The position numbers were made by a program, and so were the translations under genes. A stretch of 39,416 nucleotides of DNA from Clostridia bacterium (lineage in GTDB: Bacteria > Bacillota > Clostridia > Christensenellales > Aristaeellaceae): the NCBI GenBank assembly GCA_017443295.1, contig JAFSNT010000270.1, forward strand, positions 1 through 39,416, read 5' to 3'. Below, piece after piece: positions 22,603-36,909 of this stretch. Position 1 is the stretch's first letter. Every line of letters begins with the position of its first letter. The notes under the pieces are model-generated. The model saw only the letters and a program-made list of their open reading frames with translations. It was not told the origin of the DNA and made no database searches.

Positions 22603-22631
22603 GTAAATTCCCAAAGTAAGTTCCACAGTGG
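22603..22631 (+). repeat. IS left terminal inverted repeat
   Basis: 29 bp, the perfect reverse complement of 24134-24162. Just inside it the motif TGGGATTTAC occurs twice. Confidence 0.93.
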
Positions 22632-22711
22632 GATTTACGCTGGGATTTACTTTGAGAAGGGAAAAGAGGTTGAATATACTCTGGGAAGAAACCCAGAGAG
22701 GAGGCCAGAAA

Positions 22712-23932
22712 ATGGCTAAGAAAGAGAACCCGAACAAGAACAAGCACTTAACAGGAGAGCAACGGAAGGAGGTTGAAGAATGCCTGGCAAAGCGGATGAC
22801 GTTCAAAGCGATCGGACGGTTTCTGGAAAAGGACCCGACAACGATTTCGTATGAAGTCAAGCACCATAGAACAGAACATCGAAACGGCTTTACGAAGGAA
22901 ACCGGAACATGCCCGCGACTGTTGAAAGCGCCTTATGTGTGCAACGGATGTCCCCAAAAACATTCCGCTTCCTGCCGCTATGTACGTTACTACTACCGTG
23001 CTGATGTGGCACAGTCTGAATACAAAACGCTGCTGGTCGAAGCAAGGGAAGGGATTCCCCTGAACAAGCAAGCGTTTTACGATACAGATCGGATCATTAC
23101 CGATGGCCTGAAAAAGGGACAGCACCTTTACCATATCATGGCAAATTCTCCGGATATCACCTGCTCCAAGAGTACAGTTTACCGTCACTTTAAAAAAGGA
23201 TACTATTCCGCGTCCGTGCTTGATCTTCCAAGGGCGGTGAAGTTTAAACCCAGGAAGCAGAAGAAAATGGATTATGTTCCGGCCGGCGTCAAGGTTGGCC
23301 GCACTCATGATGATTTCCTTGCCTATGTCGCGGAACACCACCTTGAACGCCATGTCGAACTGGATACCGTGATTGGCCGCGTCGGTGGGAAGGTGATCAT
23401 GACGGTTCATTTTACCGCTTGCAATTTTATGGTTGGATTGCTGATGGACAACAAGTCCGCAGTAGAAGGCGCTATGAAGTTTTCCTCTTTCAAGAATCGT
23501 CTTCGCAATGCGGGGGTCTCTATCCTTTCTTTGTTTGACGTCCTCTTGTGCGACAACGGCGGTGAGTTTTCTGATGTTTTTTCCTTTGAAAATGATGATA
23601 AAGGCAACCGTGAAATCCCCCTGTTTTTCTGTGACCCCATGTGTTCTTCTCAAAAGGCTCAAATCGAGAAGAATCACACGCTTTTCCGCGATATTGTTCC
23701 AAAAGGGTCTTCGTTCGACGATTTCTCCCAGGAAACCGTCAACCTCATCTTTTCTCATGTCAACTCTGTCAGCCGTTCTATCTATATGGGTAAAACGCCT
23801 TATGACATGTTCTCTTTCTTCTACAATGACCGCTTTCCCTCTCTGCTGGGGATTGATCGTATTCCTCCGGACAGGGTCGTTCAGTCTCCCGCTTTGCTCG
23901 CTGGTATTGCTGATTTATCCAAAAATCTCTAA
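22712..23932 (+). CDS. IS30-family transposase
   Basis: DDE transposase that cuts and joins the ends of its IS. It has 406 residues from the ATG at 22712, with GGAGG seven bases upstream; the frame is open further upstream, but that part runs through the terminal repeat. The N-terminus has the IS30 helix-turn-helix (KHLTGEQRKEVEECLAKR, then PTTISYEVKHHR) and a cysteine-containing segment (CNGCPQKHSASC). The catalytic triad is visible as ELDTVIG (Asp218), LCDNGGEF (Asp281) and QIEKNH (Glu319). No frameshift or stop interrupts it. Confidence 0.94.
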   Translation: MAKKENPNKNKHLTGEQRKEVEECLAKRMTFKAIGRFLEKDPTTISYEVKHHRTEHRNGFTKETGTCPRLLKAPYVCNGCPQKHSASCRYVRYYYRADVAQSEYKTLLVEAREGIPLNKQAFYDTDRIITDGLKKGQHLYHIMANSPDITCSKSTVYRHFKKGYYSASVLDLPRAVKFKPRKQKKMDYVPAGVKVGRTHDDFLAYVAEHHLERHVELDTVIGRVGGKVIMTVHFTACNFMVGLLMDNKSAVEGAMKFSSFKNRLRNAGVSILSLFDVLLCDNGGEFSDVFSFENDDKGNREIPLFFCDPMCSSQKAQIEKNHTLFRDIVPKGSSFDDFSQETVNLIFSHVNSVSRSIYMGKTPYDMFSFFYNDRFPSLLGIDRIPPDRVVQSPALLAGIADLSKNL

Positions 23933-24527: not shown

Positions 24528-25604
24528 TTAATCCTGATCCAGGAATTTCCTGATTTCTGCCATGTTGGCTTCCTTATCGATCAAGTGGCCTTTCGTTCCG
24601 GCGATGATGTCATAGGGCTTCGTCGCTTCCAGGGGGAGAACCTTGAACAGCAGGGCTTCAAACAGGTCTACGCCCTGCCGGGAAGCCTGATAAGCAACCC
24701 GTGCCAGCGCCAGGGAAATGGAACGGATCTCGTCCTCCGTAAGATTGTTGAAGGCCATGCGGAAGATGGGATCCATCTGCTGACGGATGAATTGATAATC
24801 CTCCTCCGTAACGTCGTCCAGGTTAATGGCGCGGCCATGCACGCTTTCGGGCGCGCCGGTTTCATTGGTATAGAACGTCACGTGATCGGCGATGACCTTG
24901 CCCACGCTGTCGAACAAGTTGGCGATGACCTTCGCTTCCCGTCCGCAGCAGTTATACACGGAGTCATACTGCAGCCAGCCGAAGCCCACGGCCTGCAGGC
25001 CGTTCAGATGGGTGTTGGGGCCGAAGTCCGTCAGGTAGTATTCCTGCGCCAGCATCTCCACGATGGCCTGGCCCAGGAAGCCGCTGCCCACCTGCGCTTC
25101 CAGAGAAGCCTTCTTGGAAGCCACCATACCGTTCAGGGCGTTGCGTTCCGCGCGGGAGATATCCACATAGACGCCGCCGTATTCGTCGATCAGATTGGCC
25201 AGGTTCAGATAGTTCAGCGACATGTAATACTCGATGTTCATGCCGAAGTTCGCGTTGAAAACCTTCATGCATTCTTCGGGGCCGTTGTTCCGGTAGGGCA
25301 TATCCAGCTTCTGGGGCACGTCGTAGCCTTCGTAATCAATGAACGTATCCCAGGTGAACATGACCAGGCGGATCTTGCCGACCACGGGATTCATGGCCAC
25401 GAGCATCATGGTGTTTCCGGCGTTGCCCTTATCGTTGTTCATGCCTTCGTTGCAGATCAGCAGGAAATTCACCCAATCGCTGTCGTTCCCCGCGTCCTCC
25501 GCCAGCGCGAACGCTGGCAGGAGGCACAGGGCGAGTACAAGCGCCGTCAATCTGGGGATCAAGGTTTTCATTATGCGCGGCATACGGATTTTCGTCCTTT
25601 TCAT
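24528..25604 (-). CDS. Degenerate LytR-CpsA-Psr (LCP)-like exported protein
   Basis: A 358-residue protein related to LCP phosphotransferases, which attach glycopolymers to peptidoglycan. GGAGG lies nine bases before the ATG at 25604. Residues 1-35 look like a cleavable signal peptide (cleavage near FALA-ED) rather than the usual LCP membrane anchor. The LCP core is recognisable: NFLLICNEG (46-54), TMMLVAMNPVVGKIRLVMF (65-83), then YYMSLNYLNLANLIDEYGGV. However, the aspartate expected in the (R)xDT/S motif is Asn64 (GNTMM), and the arginine of the SRDT motif is Trp85 (TWDT). The active site is thus probably lost or altered; a binding or scaffold role is possible. It is the last gene of the operon, 15 bases after the YD-repeat gene. 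The LCP assignment comes from motif spacing and context. Confidence 0.75.
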   Translation of the reverse strand: MKRTKIRMPRIMKTLIPRLTALVLALCLLPAFALAEDAGNDSDWVNFLLICNEGMNNDKGNAGNTMMLVAMNPVVGKIRLVMFTWDTFIDYEGYDVPQKLDMPYRNNGPEECMKVFNANFGMNIEYYMSLNYLNLANLIDEYGGVYVDISRAERNALNGMVASKKASLEAQVGSGFLGQAIVEMLAQEYYLTDFGPNTHLNGLQAVGFGWLQYDSVYNCCGREAKVIANLFDSVGKVIADHVTFYTNETGAPESVHGRAINLDDVTEEDYQFIRQQMDPIFRMAFNNLTEDEIRSISLALARVAYQASRQGVDLFEALLFKVLPLEATKPYDIIAGTKGHLIDKEANMAEIRKFLDQD

Positions 25605-25619
25605 GAATTTGATCCTCCT

Positions 25620-28600
25620 TTACTGATTGTCCACAGGCAGGGCGTTGCGGTTCTGATCGTAGCGGTTCGTGATGATCAGCACACCGTCCATATCATAGTA
25701 ACCGTTCCAGCCCGCCACGCCGTCCTTGTTGTTGGTCAGCTTGTTATACCGGTTCAGGTAACGCTCGGAGATCAGGCGGCCTTCGCTGTCGTATCCGCGC
25801 TCAACGCTGGCATAGCCATCCTGGCAGTTGATCTGGGCGTGGATCGCGTCGAAGTAGCCTTCCCAGGTGATATTGCCGTTTTCGTCCTGCTCGTATTCCT
25901 TGATGGCGTAACCGTCCGCCGCGGTGACGGCGTTGCCGTTTCCATCCAGGAAGGTGATTTCATGCACCTGGGTAATGGGGTAGAACAGGGTGCTGACGCC
26001 CCAGGCGCCGTTCAAGGCGGCGCAGCGGTTGCCGTTTTCGTCCAGATAGTAGAGGAAGTATTTTTCCACGCGGCTGGAATCGCTCAGATCGTAATCGTAT
26101 TCCACACCGGCGTAGCCGTCGGCGTTCATCACGGGATTGCCGTTCATATCCAGCCAGACTTCCTTCGCCAGCTTGCCGAAGGGGGTGTATTCCTTGCTGA
26201 TCCCGTAAGCGCCCTTGACCGCGGCCGCGTTGCCCGCGGCGTCATAGTACCGTTCCAGGGATATCTGGCCGCGGCTGGTGTATTCCCGGATCACCCGGCT
26301 GCAGCCCTCGGCGCCCAGGGCGGCGCTGCCGTTCCTGTCAAAGTAGCTGGTTTCGATCGCCCGGCCATAGTGGTCATACTTTTCGATCCGATAGATGAAG
26401 GCGTCTTCCTCCAGCGTTTCGTCGGCGATGCGCATGACGTAGGTCTGCTCTTCCGCGTTTTCTTCCACCAGCTCGCGCCTGCTGAAGCCGTTGAGGCAGA
26501 AGGGCTGGCCGTCGGTATCCAGATAGTATTCCTCCGCGACGAGGCCGCTTTCGGCATAGGTGATGTAGTGCGCGGCGTAACCCTCGCGGCAGGGGGCCAG
26601 AGCGTCAAAATCGTCGTAGTATTCTTCGCTGATCAGACGGCTTTCCTCGTCGTAATCAAGGAAGGAATAGGAGTACAGCGAGCCTTCGGGAATGACGCCC
26701 AGCGCCAGGGTATCCAGATATCTTTCCGAGGTCTTATTGCCCAGCTCGTCGTAGGTATACTGGACGACGGCGTAGTTCATGCTGGTGTTGGTCAGATTGT
26801 CTTCGGTATCGTAGTATGCTTCCTCGATCACGTTGCCCAGAGTGTTGTAGGTCGTGGTCTTTTTCGCGTAGCCCATACGCCGGGCCTTCAGATTGCCGGA
26901 ACGGTCGTGGTAGCTGCGGGAGGTCTCCCGGCCCGCCAGATCGTAGGTATACCGGATCTCGGCGTAATCGTTGCTGTACAGCGTAGGATTGCCGGAAGCG
27001 TCAAAGTATTTGATGGACAGTACCTTTCCGTCCGCGTCCACGTCCCGGGTGAGGGAGGAGTAGAGGCCGGAGGTGTGGATCGCGGGCTGGCCCTTGGTGT
27101 TCAGCAGGCGTTCTTCCACGCAATGGTTGCGGTCATCATACTTATAAACAATTTCGCTGTAACCGTACGCGCACCAGGTGAGTCTGCCGTCTTTGCCGTA
27201 GTAGGACTGTTGGATCTTGTTGTTCCACTCATCGTAAGCATAGCCCACGGCGCTGTAGCCGCCGCTCAGGCTGACCGGCTGGCCGTCCGCGTTCAGGTAT
27301 TCTTTTCTGACGACCCGATTCAGCCCGTCCCAGGTATTGCGCATGGTAGCATACCCGGCGGAGCAGACGACGGGCATATCCTGATGATCCAGATAGGTTT
27401 CGGTCAGGATGTTGCCGTTCTTATCCACAGTGCGCCGAATGCCGGAATAACCGGCGTTGATATAGGTGCGCACGTAGTGGTCGTCCAGATAGATGATTTT
27501 GGTGAGGTAATTGTTTTCGTTGTAGGTATTCTGGACCGCGGCGTAGCCATCCTTGAACAGGGTGGGCTGGCCGAAGGTATCCAGGTAAGTGGTGCGCCAT
27601 ACCTTGCCCTGATCGCTGTATTCGTAGCGGATGCCGGCATAGCCGGAAGAAATCATGACGCTGAATCCGTTGGTGTTCAGGTAGGTCTGGCTGATCTTCC
27701 GGTCCTGCATATCGTAGCCGTAGGCGATGGAAGCGTAGCCTCCCTGGGTTTCAACGGGCTGCAGGGCGGCGTTCAGGTAGTCCGTGCGGATCAGGCGGCC
27801 GCGGGCGTCGTACACGCTGCGGGTGGCCGTGGCGCGATTGGTCAGGGAAGCGATCCGTTCGTTTTCGTCCAGGTACTGCTCCAGGATCATGTGGTTGAAC
27901 TTGTCATATTCGCGCTTCCACACGCTGAACCCTTCGGGAACGCGCACCAGATCGTCCTTTTCATCCAGATAACGGACTTCCAGGGTGTTGCCGGCAATGT
28001 CGTAAACATAGGCGATGGCGGAATAGCCGCGATTGACCATGACCCGCTGCATGCCGGCGTCCAGATAGCTTTCCTTGGTCTTCCGGCCCCACTCATCGTA
28101 TTCGTATTCGGCAGCGGCATAGCCGCCTTCGATCATGACGATCTGATCGTTGAAATACCAGACGGAGCGGACGCGGTTGTTGGCGGCGTCGTATTCATGG
28201 GTGACCCGGTTGTAACCGTCGGGCAGGATGGTGGGCTGGCCCTCAAAGTAATACCAGGCTTGCTCCAGGCAGTTGCCGTGGGCGTCCCGCTTGTAGGAAA
28301 CGAAGCTGTAGCGGCCGTTCTGCAGCACGTACCGGCCGTTCTCGCCAAAGAACGCTTCGCTGGTCAGGAAGCCCTGGGCGTCCCAGGTCTGCACCTTGCG
28401 GGCGTAGCCGCTCTTCTGCATGAGCAGATTGCCCTTGCCGTCCGTGTATTCTTCGGTCAGCAGGTCATTGGTTTCGTCGTAGGTGCAGGTTTTCAGGGCG
28501 TAGCCCTTGGAGGTGACGACGGGTTCGTTGTTCAGGCCGGTATACGCTTCGGTCAGCACGTTGCCGTTTCGGTCATAGGTGTACGCCACGGCGGCGTAAT

Positions 28601-31370
28601 TGCCCATGTACATGTAGGGCTTGCCGGTTTCGTCGAAATACGCTTCGCTGAGCAGACGGTTTTCATCGTCGTAAGTCCGCCGGATTTCAGCGGCGCCCGC
28701 GCTGACCTTGGCCACGCGTCCGTCCGCGCCGTAGTACACCTCGCGCACCAGGTTGCCCTTGGCGTCATATTCCATCAGGAAGGAGGCGTAGCCCTGGGGG
28801 CACTCCACGGGATTGCCCGCCGCGTCGAAATAGGCTTCGGACAGCATATGGCCGTCCAGATCCCAGGTGAACGCCGCCCGATGATATCCGTCCGCGATGA
28901 CGGTGGGCTGCAGCTGGGCGTCAAAATAGCTTTCGCTCAGGGTGTTTCCGCTTTCGTCAGCGACGGTTTCCTTGCGGGCAAAGCCCAGGAACGTATCGGC
29001 GGGCTGCCGGTCCGCGCCCAAATAAGTGAGGGTGGTTTTGTTTTCCGCGTCGTCATACGCAAAGCTCTTGATCGCGTAATTGTCGCGGTTGACCAGCAGG
29101 GAGCCGTTCTCGCTGTAATACGCTTCCTCCAGAATGCGGCCTTCGCCGTCCACCTTGCGCTCAAACCAGGAATAGCCTACGCTGGCAGGGGATACAGGCT
29201 CGTTATTTACGCCGTAGTACGCGCGTCGCAGCAGGTTTCCGTCGGCGTCATACTTCACTTCGTAAGCGGAATAGCCGGAGGACAGCAGGATGGGCTGACC
29301 GTCCAGGCCCAAATAATCGATCCGGGTCGTGATGCCCAGGAGGGGATCGTATGCCAGCTTCCGGGCAGAATAGCCGTCGCTGAGCATGATGGGCTTCAAA
29401 TCAGCGCCAAAGTTCGCTTCATACACCATTTGGTGCATGCCGTCATAAGCGCGTTCCACGCGGGCGCGCCCATTCACCAGCGTCAGCTCATCTTCGGAAT
29501 TGAAGTAGCTGATGGCGGTAATATTGCCGTCGGCGTCGTATGCGTAGATGACGGAAGCATAACCAGCCGCCTGGGTGAGGGCCAGGCCGTCCGCGTCGTA
29601 ATACTTTTCACCGGTATGGTGGCCGAAGTTGTCGTAGGTATGCACCTGCATGGCAAACTGGCCGCCCACGGTGACCGGCTTGCCGTCGGTGCCGAAATAC
29701 GCTTCCCACAGCAGGCTGCCGCTGCGGTCATATTCCCGCAGCACGGTGGCCGCGCCGGTGCGGCTTTCCGCCGGAGCGTCGTTCAGGCCGAAATAGCGTA
29801 CGCCGGTCTGCATCAGGTTGCCGTCGTAGCTGTATGCCACCCGATGAGCGTTATTGACCACGTTGGTATCGTTCCGGCCGTCGGCGGTAAAGAACGCTTC
29901 CTCCAGCAGCAGGCTGTTGTGGGGGCCGCCGTACACCATGCTTCTGGCGTAAGCGCCGTTGATCCCTTCGCAGGGCTGACCGTTTTCGTCGAAATACGCT
30001 TCATAGACGGCAGGGTCGGCAGTGCTCGTGCCCTGATACCGGAACGTGATGGAGGCGTACTGCGTTTCTTCGTTGCGCACCGGCTGCCAGGATTTATTAT
30101 AATAGGTAGTCCGAATGATCTGCTCGTGTTCGTTCCGTTCGTTGATCAGCCCGGCGTAACCTGCCTTGATCTGGATCAGCTGCATATTCGTGCCGAAGAA
30201 GCGTTCCCGCTCCACCTGATCGGGCCGGATCACCCACAGGTCTTCGCCGTTCTCGCCCACGGTCTTCACCCGATGGTATCGCCATTCGATGCGGGCGTAA
30301 CCGTCGTTGGACATGGTGTATTCGTCCACGATGTCATAGAAAGTCTCGCGATAATCGAAATCATCGCCGTTGTATTCCATTTCCACCATGGAATAGCCCT
30401 TTTTGATCATGGTCCGCTGATTGTCAGCGCCATAGTACCGGATAAAGCGGATATTGTCGGAGCCCTTGTAGTATTCGTTGGTGAACTTGGCGTAACCGTC
30501 CAGGTTCTTGTACAGCAGGCCGTCCTTGCCCAAGTAATCCGTTTCCACCATGCGGTTCTGTTCGTCGTACATCATGACGGCGGAAGCGTAGCCCACGGAG
30601 GCGATGATCCGTTCATCCTCCGCGCCGTAGTAATCCACCCGCACCAGATTGCCTTTTTGGTCGTAGGTGTTTTCCATCCGGTGATAATGACCCTGGGCCA
30701 CCACCTTGGCGCCGCCGGCGGAAAAATAGGATTTCGCGGTTAGCTTGCCGTTTTTGTTGTATACGGTAACGACGCTGGCGCAGCCTTCCGTACCCAGCAG
30801 GGGGGAGCCGTCCTTGTCCAGATACCGCGTGGTGATGGTTTTGGTATCGTCACCGTTCACCACGTCATAGACGATCTGGGCGTAACCCCCTGACGGCCGC
30901 GTCAGATTGCCCGCCGCGTCGTAGAAGCTGGTGGAGAGGATCTGGCTGCCGTCATACACATCCCGGCGATAGCTGAAATCGTTGGGGATGTCCGCCCGGC
31001 TGCCGTCGGCGGCGAAGCGCTCCTCGGCGGTCAGCTTGCCGTTCTCATAGGTATAAACTACCTGGGCATACCCCTTGACGGTGTTGACGGGTTCGCCGTT
31101 CAGACCGAAGTATGTTTCCTTCAGCGGCTTGGAGCTGCTGCCCCAGGCGTACTCGGCCCGATAATAGCCCTGCGCGTTCAGAGCCGGAGCGCCGTTCAGG
31201 TCGTGCACGGTTTCCCTGATCAGGTTGCCGGCCGCGTCCCATTCGCAGTCCGCCTCAGTGAAAGCGGGAATGGAAAGGGCGTCATGGCTTCCGTCTGCCC
31301 ATGCCGTGCCTGCCGCCAGCAGGGCAAGGAGCAGAAGGAATGTCAGAACGGACAGTTTGAGCTTGTTCAT
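25620..31370 (-). CDS. Giant exported protein of ~57 YD-like 32-residue repeats
   Basis: A 1916-residue exported protein. AAGGAGG precedes the ATG at 31370, which overlaps the stop of the kinase gene (ATGA), so the two are translationally coupled. Residues 1-25 are a signal peptide (cleavage after TAWA). From about residue 40 to the end the protein is a chain of roughly 55-58 repeats of 32 residues, with pattern GYA-x3-Y-x-YD-x2-GN-x3-E-x-Y-x-D-x2-G-x-PV. The motif resembles the YD repeats of RHS/Tc proteins, but there is no RHS core, no protease site and no C-terminal toxin domain; the chain ends NALPVDNQ. No LPXTG or membrane anchor is present. The repeats may form a long beta filament or shell, perhaps binding carbohydrate. 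Placement between a tyrosine kinase and an LCP-like protein suggests controlled export or wall attachment, which is inference. Confidence 0.85.
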   Translation of the reverse strand: MNKLKLSVLTFLLLLALLAAGTAWADGSHDALSIPAFTEADCEWDAAGNLIRETVHDLNGAPALNAQGYYRAEYAWGSSSKPLKETYFGLNGEPVNTVKGYAQVVYTYENGKLTAEERFAADGSRADIPNDFSYRRDVYDGSQILSTSFYDAAGNLTRPSGGYAQIVYDVVNGDDTKTITTRYLDKDGSPLLGTEGCASVVTVYNKNGKLTAKSYFSAGGAKVVAQGHYHRMENTYDQKGNLVRVDYYGAEDERIIASVGYASAVMMYDEQNRMVETDYLGKDGLLYKNLDGYAKFTNEYYKGSDNIRFIRYYGADNQRTMIKKGYSMVEMEYNGDDFDYRETFYDIVDEYTMSNDGYARIEWRYHRVKTVGENGEDLWVIRPDQVERERFFGTNMQLIQIKAGYAGLINERNEHEQIIRTTYYNKSWQPVRNEETQYASITFRYQGTSTADPAVYEAYFDENGQPCEGINGAYARSMVYGGPHNSLLLEEAFFTADGRNDTNVVNNAHRVAYSYDGNLMQTGVRYFGLNDAPAESRTGAATVLREYDRSGSLLWEAYFGTDGKPVTVGGQFAMQVHTYDNFGHHTGEKYYDADGLALTQAAGYASVIYAYDADGNITAISYFNSEDELTLVNGRARVERAYDGMHQMVYEANFGADLKPIMLSDGYSARKLAYDPLLGITTRIDYLGLDGQPILLSSGYSAYEVKYDADGNLLRRAYYGVNNEPVSPASVGYSWFERKVDGEGRILEEAYYSENGSLLVNRDNYAIKSFAYDDAENKTTLTYLGADRQPADTFLGFARKETVADESGNTLSESYFDAQLQPTVIADGYHRAAFTWDLDGHMLSEAYFDAAGNPVECPQGYASFLMEYDAKGNLVREVYYGADGRVAKVSAGAAEIRRTYDDENRLLSEAYFDETGKPYMYMGNYAAVAYTYDRNGNVLTEAYTGLNNEPVVTSKGYALKTCTYDETNDLLTEEYTDGKGNLLMQKSGYARKVQTWDAQGFLTSEAFFGENGRYVLQNGRYSFVSYKRDAHGNCLEQAWYYFEGQPTILPDGYNRVTHEYDAANNRVRSVWYFNDQIVMIEGGYAAAEYEYDEWGRKTKESYLDAGMQRVMVNRGYSAIAYVYDIAGNTLEVRYLDEKDDLVRVPEGFSVWKREYDKFNHMILEQYLDENERIASLTNRATATRSVYDARGRLIRTDYLNAALQPVETQGGYASIAYGYDMQDRKISQTYLNTNGFSVMISSGYAGIRYEYSDQGKVWRTTYLDTFGQPTLFKDGYAAVQNTYNENNYLTKIIYLDDHYVRTYINAGYSGIRRTVDKNGNILTETYLDHQDMPVVCSAGYATMRNTWDGLNRVVRKEYLNADGQPVSLSGGYSAVGYAYDEWNNKIQQSYYGKDGRLTWCAYGYSEIVYKYDDRNHCVEERLLNTKGQPAIHTSGLYSSLTRDVDADGKVLSIKYFDASGNPTLYSNDYAEIRYTYDLAGRETSRSYHDRSGNLKARRMGYAKKTTTYNTLGNVIEEAYYDTEDNLTNTSMNYAVVQYTYDELGNKTSERYLDTLALGVIPEGSLYSYSFLDYDEESRLISEEYYDDFDALAPCREGYAAHYITYAESGLVAEEYYLDTDGQPFCLNGFSRRELVEENAEEQTYVMRIADETLEEDAFIYRIEKYDHYGRAIETSYFDRNGSAALGAEGCSRVIREYTSRGQISLERYYDAAGNAAAVKGAYGISKEYTPFGKLAKEVWLDMNGNPVMNADGYAGVEYDYDLSDSSRVEKYFLYYLDENGNRCAALNGAWGVSTLFYPITQVHEITFLDGNGNAVTAADGYAIKEYEQDENGNITWEGYFDAIHAQINCQDGYASVERGYDSEGRLISERYLNRYNKLTNNKDGVAGWNGYYDMDGVLIITNRYDQNRNALPVDNQ
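25650..31250 (-). repeat. 96-bp tandem coding repeats of the YD protein
   Basis: The 32-residue period equals 96 bp and runs through almost the whole gene. Units are diverged, with conserved GY at the unit start and a D-x-x-G-x-P turn near the end, so this is an old array rather than a recent expansion. Confidence 0.8.
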
Positions 31371-32923
31371 TGCGGTTGATCCTCCTTGTTCGGTGTATCA
31401 GCTTGGTCGGGCGCCTGGGGGTCTCTGGTCAGTTTGCCCCGGGTATCGTATGGATGCCGCGTGCTGTAGCCGCCGCGGGTGCCATATTTGCTGTATTTGT
31501 CGTACTTTCCGTACTTGCCGTATTTGCCGTACTTATAGCCGTTGTAGTAGTAATACCTTCTGCTGTAATAACCGCCGTGGTTCAGGTTTTCGCCGTAGAA
31601 GACGAAGCCCAGCACGTTCAGCCCCGTCATTTCCGTTTGCTTTAAGGCCCGCTGCAGCTCCCGGTTATCGGAGAAGTGCTGGCGCACCACGAAGATCGCG
31701 CCAGCCACCTGATCGGACAGGGCCAGGGGGTCGCTTACGATGTTGATGGGGGGAGCGTCCAGCAGAACCAGATCGTAGGCGGCTTCAAATTCTTCCATCA
31801 GCCGGTGCATGGCCGGCGATTCCAGCAGCTCCGCGGGGTTGGGGGGAATGGTTCCGGCGGGCAGAATGTGCATGCTGTCCAAATGGGTCTTCACCAGCAG
31901 ATCCTTCCACGGGGAAGTGCCCACCAGCGCGTCGGACAGGCCGGGAAGGGAATCCTCATAAGCGAAAATATCGTGCTGGCACGCGCGCCGCATATCCGCG
32001 TCGATCAGCAGCACCTTTTTGCCGCTCATGGCGACTGAAATGGCTAAGTTGGCGGCGATGGTGGATTTGCCTTCGCCGGAAATGCCGCTGGTGACGACCA
32101 CGGCGTGCTTTTTCTTTTCCACCAGGGTATACAGCAGGTTCATGCGGAGCTTGGCGTAGCTTTCCACCACTTCCATCTCGCTGTTGTCGTTCAGCAGGAA
32201 TTTGGCGGGATCCACGCTTTCCTCTTTATACCGTTTCAGGGAAGCCAGCACCGGAATGCCGTAGGTGTCGGTAAGCTCCTTGGCGTCCTCGATCTTCTGG
32301 GTCAGCAGGAAGAGCAGAAACAGCAGGCCGGCCGCCGGGATCGCCCCGAATGCCGCGCCTTTGATGCCGTTCTGCATCAGGGGACGGGGGTTAGGTCTGG
32401 CGGGAGGGTCCGCGTAGTCGATGATTTCGATAGCGCCCGCACCCACCACGCGCTTGATTTCCGTGGGCGCCACGTCCATGACGGTGTTGCAGATGTCCGC
32501 CGCCCTCTGCGGGTCGGTGGTAGTGCAGCTGATCTTCAGCACGCCCGTTTCGGATACGGAGCCCATGGACAGGGTGCCGGAAATCTGGCCCGCGGTAATT
32601 TGGGGATAGTCCGGCAGCAGCCGTTCCACCACCACGTCCATCACCTTGTTGCTCCTTACCACCACCAGATAGGTGTCAATGAGCCGCACGGCGCTGGTGA
32701 TATCAGAATAACTGGTGTACCCGTAATTGACCAGATTGGGATTGGCGTTGTACACGTACATGGTGCCGGTGGCGGTGTAGGTATCCCGCGTTCGGTACGC
32801 GGTGTTCCAATACATATAGCCAAAGCCGATGCCGGCGCACAGGATGATGATCCAACAGCGCTTCAGCATAAAGAACATCAGTTTGATGATGTCAATGTTA
32901 AAAGCAACTTCTTTTTTGTTCAT
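31367..32923 (-). CDS. Fused Wzz/CpsC-CpsD-type tyrosine kinase with Tyr-rich tail
   Basis: A bacterial tyrosine kinase of 518 residues that joins the membrane adaptor and kinase in one chain, a layout more common in Proteobacteria (Wzc). Membrane segments lie at ~23-40 and ~190-208 and enclose a ~150-residue external Wzz domain. The cytoplasmic kinase has Walker A SGISGEGKS (279-287), Walker A' VLLIDADMR (304-312) and Walker B LVLLDAPP (385-392). The tail (452-492) has 15 tyrosines, many in KYG triplets, the expected autophosphorylation cluster. Such kinases regulate polymerisation and export of surface polymers through cycles of self-phosphorylation. The ATG at 32923 has a distant GAGGGG that sits in the loop of a small hairpin. 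It is the first gene of the operon and overlaps the YD-repeat gene by 4 bases. Confidence 0.92.
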   Translation of the reverse strand: MNKKEVAFNIDIIKLMFFMLKRCWIIILCAGIGFGYMYWNTAYRTRDTYTATGTMYVYNANPNLVNYGYTSYSDITSAVRLIDTYLVVVRSNKVMDVVVERLLPDYPQITAGQISGTLSMGSVSETGVLKISCTTTDPQRAADICNTVMDVAPTEIKRVVGAGAIEIIDYADPPARPNPRPLMQNGIKGAAFGAIPAAGLLFLLFLLTQKIEDAKELTDTYGIPVLASLKRYKEESVDPAKFLLNDNSEMEVVESYAKLRMNLLYTLVEKKKHAVVVTSGISGEGKSTIAANLAISVAMSGKKVLLIDADMRRACQHDIFAYEDSLPGLSDALVGTSPWKDLLVKTHLDSMHILPAGTIPPNPAELLESPAMHRLMEEFEAAYDLVLLDAPPINIVSDPLALSDQVAGAIFVVRQHFSDNRELQRALKQTEMTGLNVLGFVFYGENLNHGGYYSRRYYYYNGYKYGKYGKYGKYDKYSKYGTRGGYSTRHPYDTRGKLTRDPQAPDQADTPNKEDQPQ

Positions 32924-33056
32924 GCGGCAGAATCAACCCCTCTGCTTTACGGACGCGCGCTCCGTTTCTTTTGCTTCGTTTGGTCAGCCATGCCTTCGCA
33001 AGCCTTTTCGGGAAGCGCCAAACACTGCCCGATGTGTGTGAAGGCATACTAAACCA
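32924..33056 (-). promoter_or_regulatory. Structured leader of the kinase-YD operon
   Basis: About 130 untranslated bases. An 8-bp stem ATGCCTTC/GAAGGCAT (33047-33040/32997-32990) encloses a CGGG/CCCG pairing. A hairpin ACGGA/TCCGT follows, and a final stem GCAGA/TCTGC (32945-32941/32931-32927) holds the GAGGGG ribosome binding site in its loop region. Translation may be controlled here. No known riboswitch was recognised. Confidence 0.5.
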
Positions 33057-33062
33057 CACTCT

Positions 33063-33090
33063 ATTGTACCACTAAAAACAGAAATGTCAA
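33063..33090 (-). promoter_or_regulatory. Promoter of the kinase-YD-LCP operon
   Basis: On the minus strand TTGACA (33090-33085), a 16-bp spacer and TACAAT (33068-33063). Confidence 0.75.
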
Positions 33091-33188
33091 TTATTTTCAG
33101 TGCCCTTTATTTGCTATATTTGAGGCAGAATTGCATTCATTCGCCTATCAAAAATCCAACGGAAGCTGCAATGCCCAGGGGGGGATTG

Positions 33189-33411
33189 TCAAGGGGGCCT
33201 CCCCTTGACTGAAATCCGCACCGGCGGCGTGTACGCCGGGAGGACGAAAAATTTCTGTAAGGAGCGCAGACGACTGAAAGAAATTTTTCTACCTTGCGGT
33301 TTTTCCGCCCGGAAATCCCGTAGGGATTTTAGGAAAAACCGTGCGGGGGGCACGCGGGGGGTATGCAATACCCGCCCGCGCGTTACCATGAACCCGAAGG
33401 GGAATGGTAAC
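33189..33411. repeat. Array of perfect hairpins between the two kinase operons
   Basis: The space between the operons (33091-33428) has no gene but holds successive inverted repeats: TCAAGGGG/CCCCTTGA (33189-33196/33201-33208), CCGGCG/CGCCGG (33221-33226/33234-33239), a 10-bp pair GAAAAATTTC/GAAATTTTTC (33246-33255/33280-33289), a 10-bp pair CGGTTTTTCC/GGAAAAACCG (33297-33306/33332-33341) with AAATCCC/GGGATTT nested inside, and GTTACCAT/ATGGTAAC (33382-33389/33404-33411). The style resembles the arrays at 21-276, but the sequence differs. Confidence 0.65.
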
Positions 33412-33427
33412 GTATGATTTGCGCAAC

Positions 33428-33470
33428 AAAAAAGACGCCGCCGCTCAATAAACGAACAGCGCGCCTTTTT
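33428..33470 (-). terminator. Terminator of the CpsC-CpsD-LCP operon
   Basis: An imperfect hairpin with AGCG/CGCT at its tip is flanked by AAAAAGG and CTTTTTT on the minus strand, about 20 bases after the last gene. It is nearly symmetric. Confidence 0.65.
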
Positions 33471-33488
33471 CAGGGGCGTCCCGAACGA

Positions 33489-34127
33489 TCAGATTTTCTG
33501 AATGATGGCGAAGGGACCCAGCACCTTGGCTTCCGTGACGAAGGAGCCGTCTTTGCTGACGAAGCTGTCTTCCTCGATGGCGGTGTAGAATATTTCGCCG
33601 GTGGCGGGGTTGACCTGCATCACCAGATAATTGCCCAAATCGCTCTTCTTTACGCCCATCATGGCGTCGGCCTGCATCCTGGCGCGAACCGACATCACGT
33701 TATCCCCGTGCATATAAACGATCTGGGTGCCGTCCGTCAGGACGAGATCCTTGAAGCGGGTGACAAAATGATAGCGCGACAATTGCTCCGGGGCGGCCTG
33801 GGCGAGTTCCTCGGGCTGATACTTCTTCAGACTGGCCGCGAACTGGTAGGGTTCGATCACCAGGCTGTCAGAATTGACGCCGGTAATGATATCCTTCACG
33901 TCCGCGTTGTCATACATCGCCGCGTTAAACGGAATGACCTTGAGATACCATTCTCCGCCGGATAACTGTTCCGCGATCCACGCGCTGGTGGCATGCGCCG
34001 CGTCCGAGAGAATCTCAATCACTTCAACGTTCGACGACACATAGCCGATGCTGGGATTGGCCAGCGCGGGCGCCGCGCTGATGGAAACGAGTGCAATTAC
34101 GCAGAGAAACGCAAGAAACCTTTTCAT
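33489..34127 (-). CDS. Small exported protein of unknown function
   Basis: A 212-residue protein with a clear signal peptide (MKRFLAFLCVIALVSISAA, cleavage near PALA-NP at residue 23). AGGAGG precedes the ATG at 34127. The mature part is mixed alpha/beta with no cysteine, no transmembrane segment and no motif I recognise. Visible stretches are VEVIEILSDAAHATSAW, GEWYLKVIPFNAAMY and the C-terminal GEIFYTAIEEDSFVSKDG. It is the last gene of the operon, 90 bases after the LCP gene, in the place where the sister operon has its LCP-like gene. A role outside the membrane with the LCP protein or the kinase sensor is possible but unproven. Confidence 0.8.
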   Translation of the reverse strand: MKRFLAFLCVIALVSISAAPALANPSIGYVSSNVEVIEILSDAAHATSAWIAEQLSGGEWYLKVIPFNAAMYDNADVKDIITGVNSDSLVIEPYQFAASLKKYQPEELAQAAPEQLSRYHFVTRFKDLVLTDGTQIVYMHGDNVMSVRARMQADAMMGVKKSDLGNYLVMQVNPATGEIFYTAIEEDSFVSKDGSFVTEAKVLGPFAIIQKI

Positions 34128-34217
34128 GTCCGTATCCTCCTGGCTTTTCCTAAAGATTGAATTATCAAAGCGCGAATCCCATCCGCGCCGTGATTCGGTG
34201 TTCAGGGAAGGCGGCCC

Positions 34218-35243
34218 TCACTGCTCGATATAGAACAGATCGACCACCAGCTTTCGGACCTGCTCCGGGTCCGGGTAAAACTCGTCGTAGCTGTCTCCGA
34301 CGGTGTGCTGGCCTTCCAGGGTGTAATAATCGCCGCTTCCGAACGGGGCGTTCTTCAATTTCTTCGTCAGGTTCAGGTAGCTGCTCCTGGTGATGTTGGT
34401 GTTCACGATTTTTTCCGCCTGCATCATCTTGTCCCATGCCTTGGATGAATTCGCGGTCAGATAATCCGCCAGCTTGCCGGCAACGGCCTCGATATAGGCG
34501 CGCTGCCGCTCCATGCGGCCCACGTTGGATAGATCCTCTTCCGTGTCTCTGGAACGAATGAAGGCTTCCAGGTTCGATCCGTCGATGACGGCGGTTTCTC
34601 CCTGGACAAAGCCAAGCTCGGCCAAATCGCCGTTGGGCACGGTCACGTTCACCGGGCCGACCATCTCCGCGATCACGGGAAGGGAAGCGCTGTTGGTGAC
34701 GACATAGCTTCGGATGGGGATCTTGCACAGCAGGTCGGAGACGGCCTGGCACAGGTTCATGCCGCTGATCCTGCCGCCTTCTCCGTAGGCGTAGGCATAG
34801 CCCAAATGATCGGTAAACAGGCCGCGATCCAGGCCGTCCAGGGTGTATTTATGGATGTCCGTCATGGTGTCGCGGCTCAGGGCGATGATGCTCATCCGCC
34901 GATGATACTCGTCCAGCACGATCACGGAGATGCTGTCCGCCCGGGGGGCCAGCGTGTACTTGCTGGTCACGGCCAGAGCGTCGGGGGAGTCGACGCCGGC
35001 GTACACGATGGTGGTGATCCTTTCGTTGTAGCGGTATTTCCTGCCCTCGTATTCGATCTGCCTGTAGCCCGTGCCCACGTCCACCGAATTGCCCACCGAT
35101 ACGGCCTGGACGCGCTGGTTCTCCGCGCTCGTATACAGCCACAGCCCCACGACGGCCAGCACACACAGGGCGGCAAACACGTATACCCGCACCGCGCGGC
35201 GGTTCAAACGCCTGCGCTTTTTTTGCCTTTCTTTTTCCGACAT
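34218..35243 (-). CDS. LytR-CpsA-Psr family glycopolymer transferase
   Basis: A membrane-anchored LCP enzyme of 341 residues that would transfer a lipid-linked polymer to peptidoglycan on the outer face of the membrane. GGAG lies seven bases before the ATG at 35243. A basic N-terminus is followed by one membrane helix (~18-37). The LCP domain has RADSISVIVLD (Asp103), LSRDTM (Arg124-Asp125), YAYAYGEGG and the arginine-rich FIRSRDTEEDLSNVGRMERQR (229-248), so the key acidic and arginine residues are present. It contrasts with the altered LCP-like protein at 24528-25604. It is 53 bases downstream of the CpsD-type kinase gene. Confidence 0.92.
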   Translation of the reverse strand: MSEKERQKKRRRLNRRAVRVYVFAALCVLAVVGLWLYTSAENQRVQAVSVGNSVDVGTGYRQIEYEGRKYRYNERITTIVYAGVDSPDALAVTSKYTLAPRADSISVIVLDEYHRRMSIIALSRDTMTDIHKYTLDGLDRGLFTDHLGYAYAYGEGGRISGMNLCQAVSDLLCKIPIRSYVVTNSASLPVIAEMVGPVNVTVPNGDLAELGFVQGETAVIDGSNLEAFIRSRDTEEDLSNVGRMERQRAYIEAVAGKLADYLTANSSKAWDKMMQAEKIVNTNITRSSYLNLTKKLKNAPFGSGDYYTLEGQHTVGDSYDEFYPDPEQVRKLVVDLFYIEQ

Positions 35244-35296
35244 AATCAGCTCCGTTCAGGGGGTGGGGAGGGAAAGAACCGTCAGCTTGCGGCCCG

Positions 35297-36154
35297 TCAG
35301 CCGCCGCTTTTGTTTTTCGTTTTACCGCGCCTTCTTCCGACTGCCTTTTTTTCTTTTTGCTCCTTTGTTTTGCCGTAACCGTAGCCGTATTTCTGGCCAT
35401 AGCCGTATCCGTATTTCTGGCCGTAACCGTAGCCATACCCGTAGCCGTAGCCGTAAGCGCCCTTGTGGAAGCCGGTCTTGTTGAGTACGACCCCCAGCAT
35501 CTTCACGTCGGCGTAATTCAGCTGCTGTACGGCGTGCATGGACTGGCGGCGTTCAGACGCGCCGCTTTCCACAACCAGCACCGTTCCGTCGCATTCCTTG
35601 GCGATCAGCAGGGCGTCGATGACGGCGTTCACGGGCGGCGTGTCCACGATGATATAATCGTATTGGCCGCGCAGCTCCCGCATCAGGCCGCGAAACAGCT
35701 CCCCGGAAAACAGCTCGCTGGGGTTGGGCGCGATGGAACCGGCGAAAAGAATGTCGAGGTACGGATCCTTGGTGCCCCAAATGGCGTCCTGCATGCTGAT
35801 CTCGCCGCACAGGAAATCCGTCAGGCCGTAGATATACTTTGCCTGCCGCACCTTGTAGCGGCTCAAAATGGCGCTGTTGCGGATATCGCAGTCCAGGAAG
35901 ATGGTGCGCTTGCCCAGCGCCGCGAAGCTCTTGGCCAGACGGAAGGATATGGCCGATTTCCCTTCGTGGATCTGCGCGCTGGTGATGCAGATGGTCTTGA
36001 TGGCGTAGCCGCTGAGCTGAATATTGCCCCGCAGGGTATTGACGGCCTCGTTGACCAGGAAGGGCGCGGGGGGAATCGTCATTTCGGCGATCCGACGCTC
36101 CGGAACATACGTCTTTTCGTACATTTTATTCTCCACGGAATAAATCCCTTTCAT
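35297..36154 (-). CDS. CpsD-type tyrosine kinase with GY-repeat tail
   Basis: A cytoplasmic bacterial tyrosine kinase of up to 285 residues that works with the CpsC adaptor encoded just upstream. Walker A is SAQIHEGKS (59-67), with Ala and His where family members usually have glycine or proline-glycine; Walker A' is TIFLDCDIR (84-92) and Walker B YIIVDTPP (167-174). The tail (234-260) is a near-perfect GY alternation with 12 tyrosines, followed by a basic end. The given start overlaps the stop of the CpsC gene (ATGA); an ATG at 36124 with GGAG six bases upstream is an equally good start and would shorten the protein by ten residues. There is no membrane segment, as expected for a split kinase. 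Confidence 0.92.
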   Translation of the reverse strand: MKGIYSVENKMYEKTYVPERRIAEMTIPPAPFLVNEAVNTLRGNIQLSGYAIKTICITSAQIHEGKSAISFRLAKSFAALGKRTIFLDCDIRNSAILSRYKVRQAKYIYGLTDFLCGEISMQDAIWGTKDPYLDILFAGSIAPNPSELFSGELFRGLMRELRGQYDYIIVDTPPVNAVIDALLIAKECDGTVLVVESGASERRQSMHAVQQLNYADVKMLGVVLNKTGFHKGAYGYGYGYGYGYGQKYGYGYGQKYGYGYGKTKEQKEKKAVGRRRGKTKNKSGG

Positions 36155-36909
36155 TTGTTGTCATGCTCCGCCTGATCCGAAAAATACGGCACGGAAGCGA
36201 GCAGCGGCAGCCTCAGGTATTTCTTCACGTCGTCTTCGTTTTTCAGGGTGGTATCCATCATCACCGACAGGGTAATGAACGCGGCCACCAGCAGCACGCC
36301 GAACAGCATGCCGTATATGGCATGGATCTTTCTGCCCGGGGTGATGTTTTCCACGGCCTCCGCTTCGGAATGGTCGATGATGGTGGGTTCGCTGGTGCCG
36401 ATGACCTGGAAAATGCGTTCGATGCTCACGTTCAGCAGCTCGTTGGCGATGAGCCGGCAGCTTTCCTCGTCGCCGGTGGTCACCGCCGTTTTGATGATGT
36501 GCGTTCCGGAAGGATTGGAGACGGAGATCATGCCGCCCAGCTTTTTGTAATCAATGTCCAGCTCCAGTTCCTCGATCACCTTGTTCAGCACCGCGCGGCT
36601 TTTAATGATGGACTTATAGTCCTCCGTCAAAGCGGAACCCAACTGCAGATCGGAAAGGGAAATGAGGGTGTCGGTATTGGTGATGTACATTTCCGTCGTG
36701 GCCTTATATTGCGGATGGACGAAAAGGCTGTAATAGCTCATGGAGACCACCACGCCCACCACGGCGCCCAGCACCAGCAGCTTCCAGTTCCGCAAAAGCG
36801 TGAAAAACAGCTCCACAAGATCTATTTCCTGGATGTACGGCGACTGCGTATTGGGCCTGACCGCCGCCGCGCTCCGCTCGGGCGAAACCGCCTGCTTGCT
36901 CTGCTCCAT
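36151..36909 (-). CDS. CpsC/Wzz-type membrane adaptor of the tyrosine kinase
   Basis: A chain-length-determinant (Wzz) membrane protein of 252 residues that activates the CpsD kinase and senses or controls polymer export. Membrane helices lie at ~43-62 and ~196-217 with an external domain between them; the cytoplasmic C-terminus (DVKKYLRLPLLASVPYF) would contact the kinase. The ATG at 36909 has AAGGAG about 12 bases upstream; a GTG 11 codons earlier is a weaker alternative. It is the first gene of the operon and overlaps the kinase gene. Confidence 0.9.
   Translation of the reverse strand: MEQSKQAVSPERSAAAVRPNTQSPYIQEIDLVELFFTLLRNWKLLVLGAVVGVVVSMSYYSLFVHPQYKATTEMYITNTDTLISLSDLQLGSALTEDYKSIIKSRAVLNKVIEELELDIDYKKLGGMISVSNPSGTHIIKTAVTTGDEESCRLIANELLNVSIERIFQVIGTSEPTIIDHSEAEAVENITPGRKIHAIYGMLFGVLLVAAFITLSVMMDTTLKNEDDVKKYLRLPLLASVPYFSDQAEHDNK

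What the first reader, a model, noticed from the sequence alone, without database searches (positions are those of the whole stretch)
24528..36909. Twin tyrosine-kinase/LCP operons without any polysaccharide synthesis genes
Two adjacent operons share a design: Wzz-BY-kinase module, exported protein, LCP-family protein. In capsule loci these components sit with glycosyltransferases, a flippase and a polymerase; none is present across 12.4 kb. In the first operon a 1916-residue YD-repeat protein, coupled by a 4-base overlap to the kinase gene, takes the place of the polymer genes. The seen facts are the genes and their coupling. The inference is a kinase-controlled system that exports or anchors a protein filament, or acts on a polymer made elsewhere.
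Basis: partly seen in the sequence, partly recalled or inferred. Interest (0 to 1): 0.75.

Follow-up and report, generated by a model that had tools for sequence, protein, structure and literature searches.

The report
Capsule-gene head with giant repeat protein
A gut-bacterial gene trio - a membrane kinase, a giant secreted repeat protein and a disarmed wall-linking enzyme - looks like the fixed front end of surface-sugar (capsule) gene clusters, here separated from the sugar-making genes, and the giant protein is an unexpected part of such clusters.

Summary
The genes are there as described: WZZ2-KIN2-LCP2-EXP212, then, apparently in a separate unit, fused Wzz-kinase (KINF)-YD (1916 aa)-LCP1; no sugar-polymer gene was found in the 39.4-kb contig. 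The inference from that absence fails. In 30 of 32 homologous loci KINF-YD-LCP1 stand in the same order, and of 26 loci with at least 12 kb of contig downstream, 22 carry a sugar transferase or Wzx-type flippase there on the same strand. The trio is a constant head; the polymer genes behind it are exchanged (G163/G185: trio 91-95% identical, none of 14 downstream proteins 60% identical). YD, LCP1 and KINF co-occur almost perfectly in 300 genomes. YD has nearly constant length, 55 ordered repeats and no variable toxin end. LCP1 keeps the LCP signal, but 33 of 33 copies lack three catalytic arginines at their aligned columns. Divergent YD giants head a second kind of capsule-type locus. Best reading: YD and pseudo-LCP are chemistry-independent parts of exopolysaccharide assembly or retention, parted from polymer genes in this clade but under purifying selection. 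The second operon is an ordinary CpsCD/LCP module. No structure could be predicted; function is inferred from context.

The parts
31367..32923 (-). KINF: fused Wzz-like chain-length regulator and BY-kinase, 518 aa, Tyr-rich tail
   Evidence: TIGR01007 165 bits, TIGR01006 75 bits; GEGKST, DxD and DxPP conserved in at least 30 of 31 aligned rows
25620..31370 (-). YD: 1916-aa protein, 55 repeats of about 32 residues (consensus GYARVEYTYDEDGNLLSEAYLDANGQPVMNSD), signal-peptide-like N-terminus (by eye), no LPxTG in the five tails checked
   Evidence: 32 further full-length loci of 1865-1976 aa
24528..25604 (-). LCP1: LCP-type protein with signal-peptide-like N-terminus (by eye) and without the usual catalytic Arg set
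   Evidence: PF03816 51 bits; profile hits LCP structures, best 4.9e-13; 33 of 33 orthologues R->W, R->W, R->Q
36151..36909 (-). WZZ2: separate chain-length regulator (CpsC/CapA type)
   Evidence: PF02706 58 bits, TIGR01006 140 bits
35297..36154 (-). KIN2: separate BY-kinase (CpsD/CapB type), Gly-Tyr-rich tail
   Evidence: TIGR01007 197 bits
34218..35243 (-). LCP2: canonical LCP protein (GVD, ADS, SRDT, IRSR, GRMERQ present)
   Evidence: PF03816 61 bits
33489..34127 (-). EXP212: small exported-looking protein of unknown family, last gene of the second operon
   Evidence: no family; homologues of 90, 59 and 35 bits in the same place in L122, L123, L124
33063..33090 (-). promoter-like site (TTGACA-16-TACAAT) before KINF
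   Evidence: consensus match only
33439..33461 (-). terminator-like hairpin after EXP212
   Evidence: consensus match only

Best explanation
KINF-YD-LCP1 is the conserved 5' head of a Wzx/Wzy-type exopolysaccharide (EPS) locus found so far in one bacterial family; in this genome and its nearest relative it is not beside polymer genes but next to an ordinary CpsCD/LCP regulatory module. Shown: order, coupling, co-occurrence, association with EPS genes in relatives, exchange of the polymer genes behind a constant trio, nearly constant length of YD, loss of LCP catalytic residues, purifying selection in the window's clade. Inferred: KINF sets polymer length and activity as other polysaccharide co-polymerase kinases do; YD is secreted by the Sec route and forms a large fixed-size repeat body outside the membrane; LCP1 keeps a lipid-glycan- or YD-binding fold but no longer transfers polymer to peptidoglycan; together YD and LCP1 receive or retain the growing polymer at the surface whatever its sugar chemistry, taking the place of, or assisting, covalent attachment by a catalytic LCP.
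For: Trio in order in 30 of 32 loci. PF02397 downstream, same strand, in 23 of 34 genomes at 2.6-19 kb against about 0.4 expected by a rough estimate; PF01943 in 12 of 34, a lower bound; glycosyltransferase, Wzy_C just under its cut-off and Wzx in G185. One-contig genomes G163 and G185 have a single BY-kinase at E<=1e-30, KINF, in front of the EPS cluster. In 300 family genomes LCP1 is in 37, all among the 39 with YD, the two misses being contig ends; KINF in 39. G186 keeps LCP1 on another contig than KINF-YD, so the link is not only position. Constant trio before exchanged polymer genes in G163/G185. Pairwise identities of YD and LCP1 correlate at 0.91. The same repeat is 58% identical between window and orthologues, repeats within the window protein 21%. 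dN/dS window versus G150 is 0.16 for KINF and YD (C-terminal 1498 codons), 0.26 for LCP1. Divergent YD giants head four loci with fused kinase, CpsB and LCP in genus g32 (families checked in one).
Against: In the window and in G150 (32 kb downstream) no EPS gene was found near, nor by PF02397/PF01943 in G225, G154 and G201 although there was room (in G201 CapD-like and NusG-like genes lie upstream instead, read by eye). Co-occurrence of neighbours is partly trivial, since adjacent genes are lost together; G186 is the only parted case. 13 of 20 divergent YD giants inspected showed no kinase, LCP or evident EPS gene, so YD repeats alone do not imply EPS. The scaffold role is read from position and conservation only. 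LCP1 keeps the Asp of SRDT and has invariant Arg residues of its own, and the alignment beyond residue 156 is weaker, so inactivity is likely, not shown. Near pairs other than G163/G185 do share downstream genes (7 of 13 in G066/G132).
Confidence: 0.68

Rival explanations
1. YD is a surface adhesin or matrix protein merely co-expressed with EPS: the kinase operon is a convenient place, but YD takes no part in making or holding the polymer.
For: Large YD-repeat proteins are frequent in this family (matches at E<=1e-20 in 106 of 300 genomes), and 13 of 20 divergent ones inspected lie without evident EPS or kinase genes.
Against: YD length and repeat order are nearly fixed; it sits between, and co-occurs with, KINF and LCP1, and LCP1 is kept in G186 although it lies elsewhere.
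Confidence: 0.22
2. One reading: a kinase-controlled exporter or anchor of a protein filament, without polysaccharide.
For: No polymer gene found in the contig nor a PF02397 or listed PF01943 hit in 32 kb downstream in G150.
Against: EPS-type genes follow the trio in 22 of 26 loci with at least 12 kb of room; in two one-contig genomes this is the only BY-kinase at E<=1e-30 and it heads the EPS locus.
Confidence: 0.07
3. In the window's clade the trio is a decaying leftover: the EPS cluster was lost or displaced and the head is no longer used.
For: Behind LCP1 lie a tRNA gene, an IS30 transposase and a type III restriction system instead of EPS genes; G263 shows what decay looks like, with KINF cut to about half and no YD orthologue or LCP1.
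Against: All three window genes are open; dN/dS to G150 is 0.16-0.26; this genome and G150 have EPS clusters with no BY-kinase on the stretches read.
Confidence: 0.12
4. YD is an Rhs/WapA-type polymorphic toxin with LCP1 in the immunity-gene place.
For: RHS_repeat match just over its cut-off; large secreted-looking YD protein followed by a small gene.
Against: No variable C-terminal domain: the end is conserved across 33 orthologues; the next gene is the same LCP-type protein in 31 of 32 loci; period 32; no DPxG-type core motif stood out in the four sequences printed.
Confidence: 0.02

Closest known systems
Wzy-dependent capsule/EPS head CpsABCD (Streptococcus) and CapAB with LcpC (Staphylococcus)
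   Same: PCP protein, BY-kinase and LCP protein work before exchangeable polymer genes; the window's second operon is of this kind, and in G186 it also has the CpsB phosphatase
   Different: First operon has PCP and kinase fused, no phosphatase, a 1.9-2.0-kaa repeat protein in the middle and an LCP without three catalytic arginines
E. coli Wzc (PCP-2a, fused kinase)
   Same: PCP and kinase in one chain with Tyr-rich tail
   Different: Shorter chain (518 aa against the 720-position Wzc profile); no outer-membrane exporter gene was noticed in the loci, though none was searched for
Rhs/YD proteins (WapA, Rhs toxins, teneurins; recalled)
   Same: Tandem YD-containing repeats, secreted-looking, weak PF05593 match
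   Different: 32-residue period, no variable toxin end, nearly fixed length, EPS-locus context
Actinomyces oris LcpA-GspA (LCP that attaches glycan to a surface protein; passages of PMC7831098)
   Same: An LCP protein working with a surface protein rather than peptidoglycan
   Different: A. oris LcpA needs its arginines; LCP1 lacks three at the aligned columns; GspA is not a YD protein (recalled)
VanZ lipocone proteins linked to exopolysaccharide genes (passages of PMC12419801)
   Same: A YD-repeat plus VanZ protein occurs inside an EPS cluster of a relative
   Different: No VanZ domain was found in the giant YD

Membership tests
Wzy-dependent EPS/capsule locus | PCP protein with BY-kinase | tested here: met
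Wzy-dependent EPS/capsule locus | initiating sugar transferase, glycosyltransferases, Wzx, Wzy in the same cluster | tested here: not met
   Not found in the window. Met in relatives: PF02397 in 23 of 34, PF01943 in at least 12 of 34; GT1, sub-cut-off Wzy_C and Wzx in G185. The window trio is a homologue of a locus head, not itself a full locus
BY-kinase | Walker A, A', B motifs and C-terminal Tyr cluster | tested here: met
   GEGKST, DxD, DxPP conserved; at least five Tyr in the last 70 residues in 27 of 30 orthologues, the other three have long tails
BY-kinase | autophosphorylation | not testable with these tools
   needs biochemistry
LCP phosphotransferase (LCP1) | LCP sequence/fold signal | tested here: met
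   PF03816 51 bits over 24.6, but TIGR00350 38.7 under 62.3; profile hits 16 PDB sequences, best 4.9e-13, LCP proteins by name or recalled
LCP phosphotransferase (LCP1) | catalytic Arg and Mg-binding Asp residues | tested here: not met
   33 of 33 have W, W, Q at three Arg columns and G at the GVD Asp; N in 32 and S in 1 at the ADS Asp; the GRxxRQ Arg column is R in 1 of 33; the Asp of SRDT is kept. Roles from passages of PMC7831098
LCP phosphotransferase (LCP2) | catalytic Arg and Asp residues | tested here: met
   all eight columns canonical by construction of the comparison, and shared by five other LCPs
Rhs polymorphic toxin | variable C-terminal toxin domain | tested here: not met
   C-terminus conserved in 33 sequences
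Rhs/teneurin fold | closed YD shell structure | not testable with these tools
CpsBCD phosphoregulatory module (second operon) | PCP plus separate BY-kinase plus PHP phosphatase CpsB | tested here: inconclusive
   PCP and kinase present; no CpsB gene beside them in the window, but one at the same genomic site in G186

The most novel reading that the evidence does not exclude
A new way of holding a capsule: the polymer is handed by a kinase-controlled polymerase to a giant fixed-length YD-repeat protein instead of to peptidoglycan, with a disarmed LCP protein presenting the lipid-linked chain. YD would be the acceptor or ruler of the polymer, independent of its sugar chemistry, which would explain why one trio fronts different EPS clusters and why two divergent kinds of YD giant stand beside kinase and LCP genes.
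Probability: 0.17. Interest if true: 0.85.

Novelty: new variant of a known kind. Interest (0 to 1): 0.6.

Why it matters
According to the review PMC12220298 (section 9 read), LCP-based capsule attachment is well established only for Staphylococcus and Streptococcus. Here a family of bacteria couples EPS loci to a giant secreted-looking repeat protein and a conserved LCP homologue without the usual catalytic residues. If YD and pseudo-LCP hold or measure the polymer, this is a protein-based alternative or aid to covalent attachment, and the exchange of polymer genes behind a constant trio offers a natural test of which parts ignore sugar chemistry.

Tried and rejected
Rejected: protein-filament exporter without polysaccharide (EPS-type genes follow the trio in relatives). 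Rejected: Rhs toxin (conserved C-terminus). Rejected: twin operons as one conserved unit; in the 32 orthologue loci no second operon was seen beside the trio, of the others only G150 was seen to have both (in G252 the contig ends), while G186 has the second operon plus LCP1 at the same genomic site without KINF-YD. The 2052-aa ORF antisense to YD lost to YD in codon-based gene calling and was taken as an artefact.

Led nowhere: PDB sequence search with YD. Literature: searches, plus 53 on one genus name; from the listings, and passages of PMC12419801, none was seen to describe the trio or a YD protein in a polysaccharide locus. Only openly licensed PMC papers are held, so absence from print is not shown. 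The class-wide search found no YD match at E<=1e-60 in 390 other genomes; weaker relatives were not looked for.

Weaknesses: my gene finder was trained on window genes and missed AT-rich EPS genes until a length-based fill was added; it cut or missed KINF or LCP1 in some loci, so trio counts rest on tblastn. The PF01943 list was cut by the tool, so that count is a lower bound. Coordinates were typed. One search ended with an error on a last, meaningless control line after printing the results used. The set of 39 YD orthologues was chosen by me (strong matches, mostly above 50% identity; G040 39%). The 20 divergent giants were picked by hand, not at random; their neighbours were compared only with window proteins and read by eye, and L160 and L161 are short. 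LoaP and exporter families were tested on one representative each.
Full report
What is there. The window is a whole contig (C254, 39,416 bases) of a 3.46-Mb assembly in 274 contigs, 86% complete, 7% contaminated. On the minus strand lie WZZ2-KIN2-LCP2-EXP212 and then KINF-YD-LCP1. Families: WZZ2 PF02706, KIN2 and KINF TIGR01007, LCP1 and LCP2 PF03816, all over their cut-offs; YD a single PF05593 stretch; EXP212 none. KINF and YD overlap by 4 bases, LCP1 follows 15 bases after YD. A terminator-like hairpin after EXP212 and a near-consensus promoter before KINF suggest two units. No polymer-synthesis gene was found among the 17 window proteins scanned with Pfam. On the left follow tRNA-Leu, an IS30 transposase, type III restriction genes and a 3377-aa exported-looking protein; on the right only 2.5 kb remain.

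The trio in relatives. A search of 300 genomes of the same family with YD found matches at E<=1e-20 in 106; 39 of these (window included) carry what I take as orthologues, mostly above 50% identical, G040 39%; the other 67 have divergent repeat proteins, around 30% identical in the rows listed. Full-length copies from 32 other genomes are 1865-1976 aa without stops. By tblastn KINF lies upstream in 31 of 32 and LCP1 downstream in 31 of 32, all three in 30 of 32 (in L056 KINF reads in two pieces). The exceptions are G201 (no KINF) and G186 (no LCP1 there). In the 31 loci with KINF the nearest candidate YD start lies within 160 bases of the KINF stop. In a class sample, 390 other genomes gave no match at E<=1e-60 (at least one of them, G035, is of the same family).

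EPS genes behind the trio. Searches of 35 genomes with PF02397 and PF01943 were set against YD positions in the 34 non-window genomes: PF02397 lies within 25 kb downstream in 23 of 34, in all 23 on the same strand, 2.6-19 kb away; PF01943 in 12 of 34, a lower bound. Of the 26 with at least 12 kb of contig downstream, 22 have one or both; exceptions are G225, G154, G201 and G150. Of the eight with less room, two have a hit. A rough estimate of chance is 0.4 of 34. In G185 Pfam gives sugar transferase, glycosyltransferase, Wzx and a Wzy_C match just under its cut-off. A protein family of about 165 aa occurs in 17 of 32 neighbourhoods, usually next after LCP1; one member matches antiterminator LoaP at 45 bits, below the cut-off of 125. 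In the one-contig genomes G163 and G185 the kinase of the trio is the only BY-kinase at E<=1e-30.

Constant head, exchanged tail. G163 and G185 have YD, LCP1 and KINF 91, 95 and 92% identical, but none of 14 downstream proteins is 60% identical or more, and one is 30-60%. Other near pairs share more: 7 of 13 in G066/G132, 3 of 14 in G082/G055. Pairwise identities correlate: YD-LCP1 0.91, YD-KINF 0.82, which common descent alone would also give.

Co-occurrence. In the same 300 genomes LCP1 (profile A2, E<=1e-40) occurs in 37, all within the 39 YD genomes (Fisher 2e-45, not corrected for relatedness or for adjacency). The two YD genomes without LCP1, G036 and G204, have YD cut by a contig end. 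KINF (profile A3, E<=1e-80) occurs in 39: YD without KINF in G201 and in G252 (contig end); KINF without YD in G169 (contig end) and in G263, where about half of KINF is left and unrelated genes follow. In the genus 6 of at least 26 genomes have YD (the list of misses is capped), so the trio comes and goes together.

The window's clade. G150, the closest relative (YD about 93% over most of its length), has WZZ2-KIN2-LCP2-EXP212-KINF-YD on one contig end and YD-LCP1, a restriction-like gene (48-bit match to the window's) and a 3382-aa protein on another. dN/dS between window and G150 is 0.16 for KINF and for the C-terminal 1498 codons of YD, 0.26 for LCP1, 0.14-0.36 for the second operon. G186 has, at a site with the same ribosomal-protein and GNAT neighbours, CpsB-WZZ2-KIN2-LCP2-EXP-LCP1 without KINF-YD, and its KINF-YD on another contig directly before sugar genes. 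So LCP1 is kept even when parted. EPS clusters without a BY-kinase on the stretches read are seen in this genome (C263, whose first genes lie near the contig end) and in G150 (C32, C5), while the three BY-kinases of G150 lie on contigs C13 and C58. This fits a split, trans-acting arrangement but does not prove it.

The second operon. CpsB/CapC phosphatase (PF19567 in G186), PCP, kinase, LCP and a small exported-looking protein form a module without polymer genes beside it in G186, G094 and G248, and in part in G176. The window lacks the phosphatase there. This part is ordinary.

YD. 55 units of about 32 residues (39 of 54 spacings exactly 32); the same unit is 58% identical between window and orthologues, different units of the window protein 21%. 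Length is 1928-1976 in 31 of 33, the others being the window (1916) and L054 (1865, start uncertain). The C-terminus is conserved. This looks like one fixed body rather than a length-variable adhesin or a toxin carrier.

LCP1. The profile finds LCP-type structures in the PDB (best 4.9e-13). In 33 of 33 orthologues three arginine columns hold W, W and Q, and the GVD and ADS aspartate columns hold G (33) and N (32) or S (1); the Asp of SRDT is kept. Eight other LCPs, four of the own genome and four of relatives, were compared; six are canonical at these columns, while C212 and C180 are partly aberrant too. LCP1 has its own invariant motif GWLQYDSVxNCCxR in 33 of 33. The roles of the arginines and aspartates are taken from passages of the review PMC7831098; the alignment of the second half is less sure than that of the first.

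A second architecture. Of 20 divergent YD giants inspected (picked by hand), four of genus g32 (L143, L145, L152, L153) stand with fused Wzz-kinase, CpsB-like and LCP genes; in L145 Pfam confirms these and CapD (PF02719) and sugar transferase behind them. L144 has a Wzz-like gene near; two of genus g27 (L147, L159) stand by sugar-nucleotide-type genes, read by eye; in the other 13 I saw no link. EPS clusters of five genomes hold a 474-506-aa protein matching YD; in G185 it ends in VanZ, and the G236 protein looks alike by eye.

Mechanism. By established knowledge PCP/BY-kinases control Wzy polymer length and LCP proteins attach polymer to peptidoglycan (PMC12220298, passages and section 9; PMC6441080, abstract). 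A secreted body encoded between these two genes, constant while polymer genes change, is most simply a chemistry-independent part of polymer assembly or retention. That EPS is involved I hold at about 0.9; that YD itself handles or holds the polymer at about 0.6; that LCP1 binds without transferring at about 0.6.

Noticed in passing
upstream of KINF in relatives, e.g. L067:1418-6353: An NHLP/NHLM-type bacteriocin export pair (TIGR03796 over, TIGR03797 just under its cut-off) with a short HlyD-like protein lies next to KINF; the HlyD-like family is in 12 of 32 loci, families checked only in L067. Not seen in the window.
   Followed up: partly
L081:13887-15356 and L101:14859-16301: About 480-aa protein with a TM segment, YD-like repeats and a VanZ domain (Pfam only for the first) inside EPS clusters.
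   Followed up: partly
window:6932-17065: 3377-aa exported-looking protein with a BspA-type LRR match at its end (PF13306); 3382-aa counterpart in G150.
   Followed up: no
window:17231-22343 and 22628-23932: Type III restriction-modification genes next to an IS30 transposase and a tRNA-Leu gene, in the place where relatives have EPS genes.
   Followed up: partly
L128, L129: Other loci with a LoaP-like gene, fused kinase, LCP, a small exported-looking protein and an 806-821-aa protein (the L129 one matches Opp4A at 40 bits, far under the cut-off).
   Followed up: no
window:353-2197: FIST domains joined to a GGDEF domain.
   Followed up: no
L163 (G263): About half of KINF is left with unrelated genes behind it, and no YD orthologue or LCP1 was found in that genome: a lost module.
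   Followed up: partly
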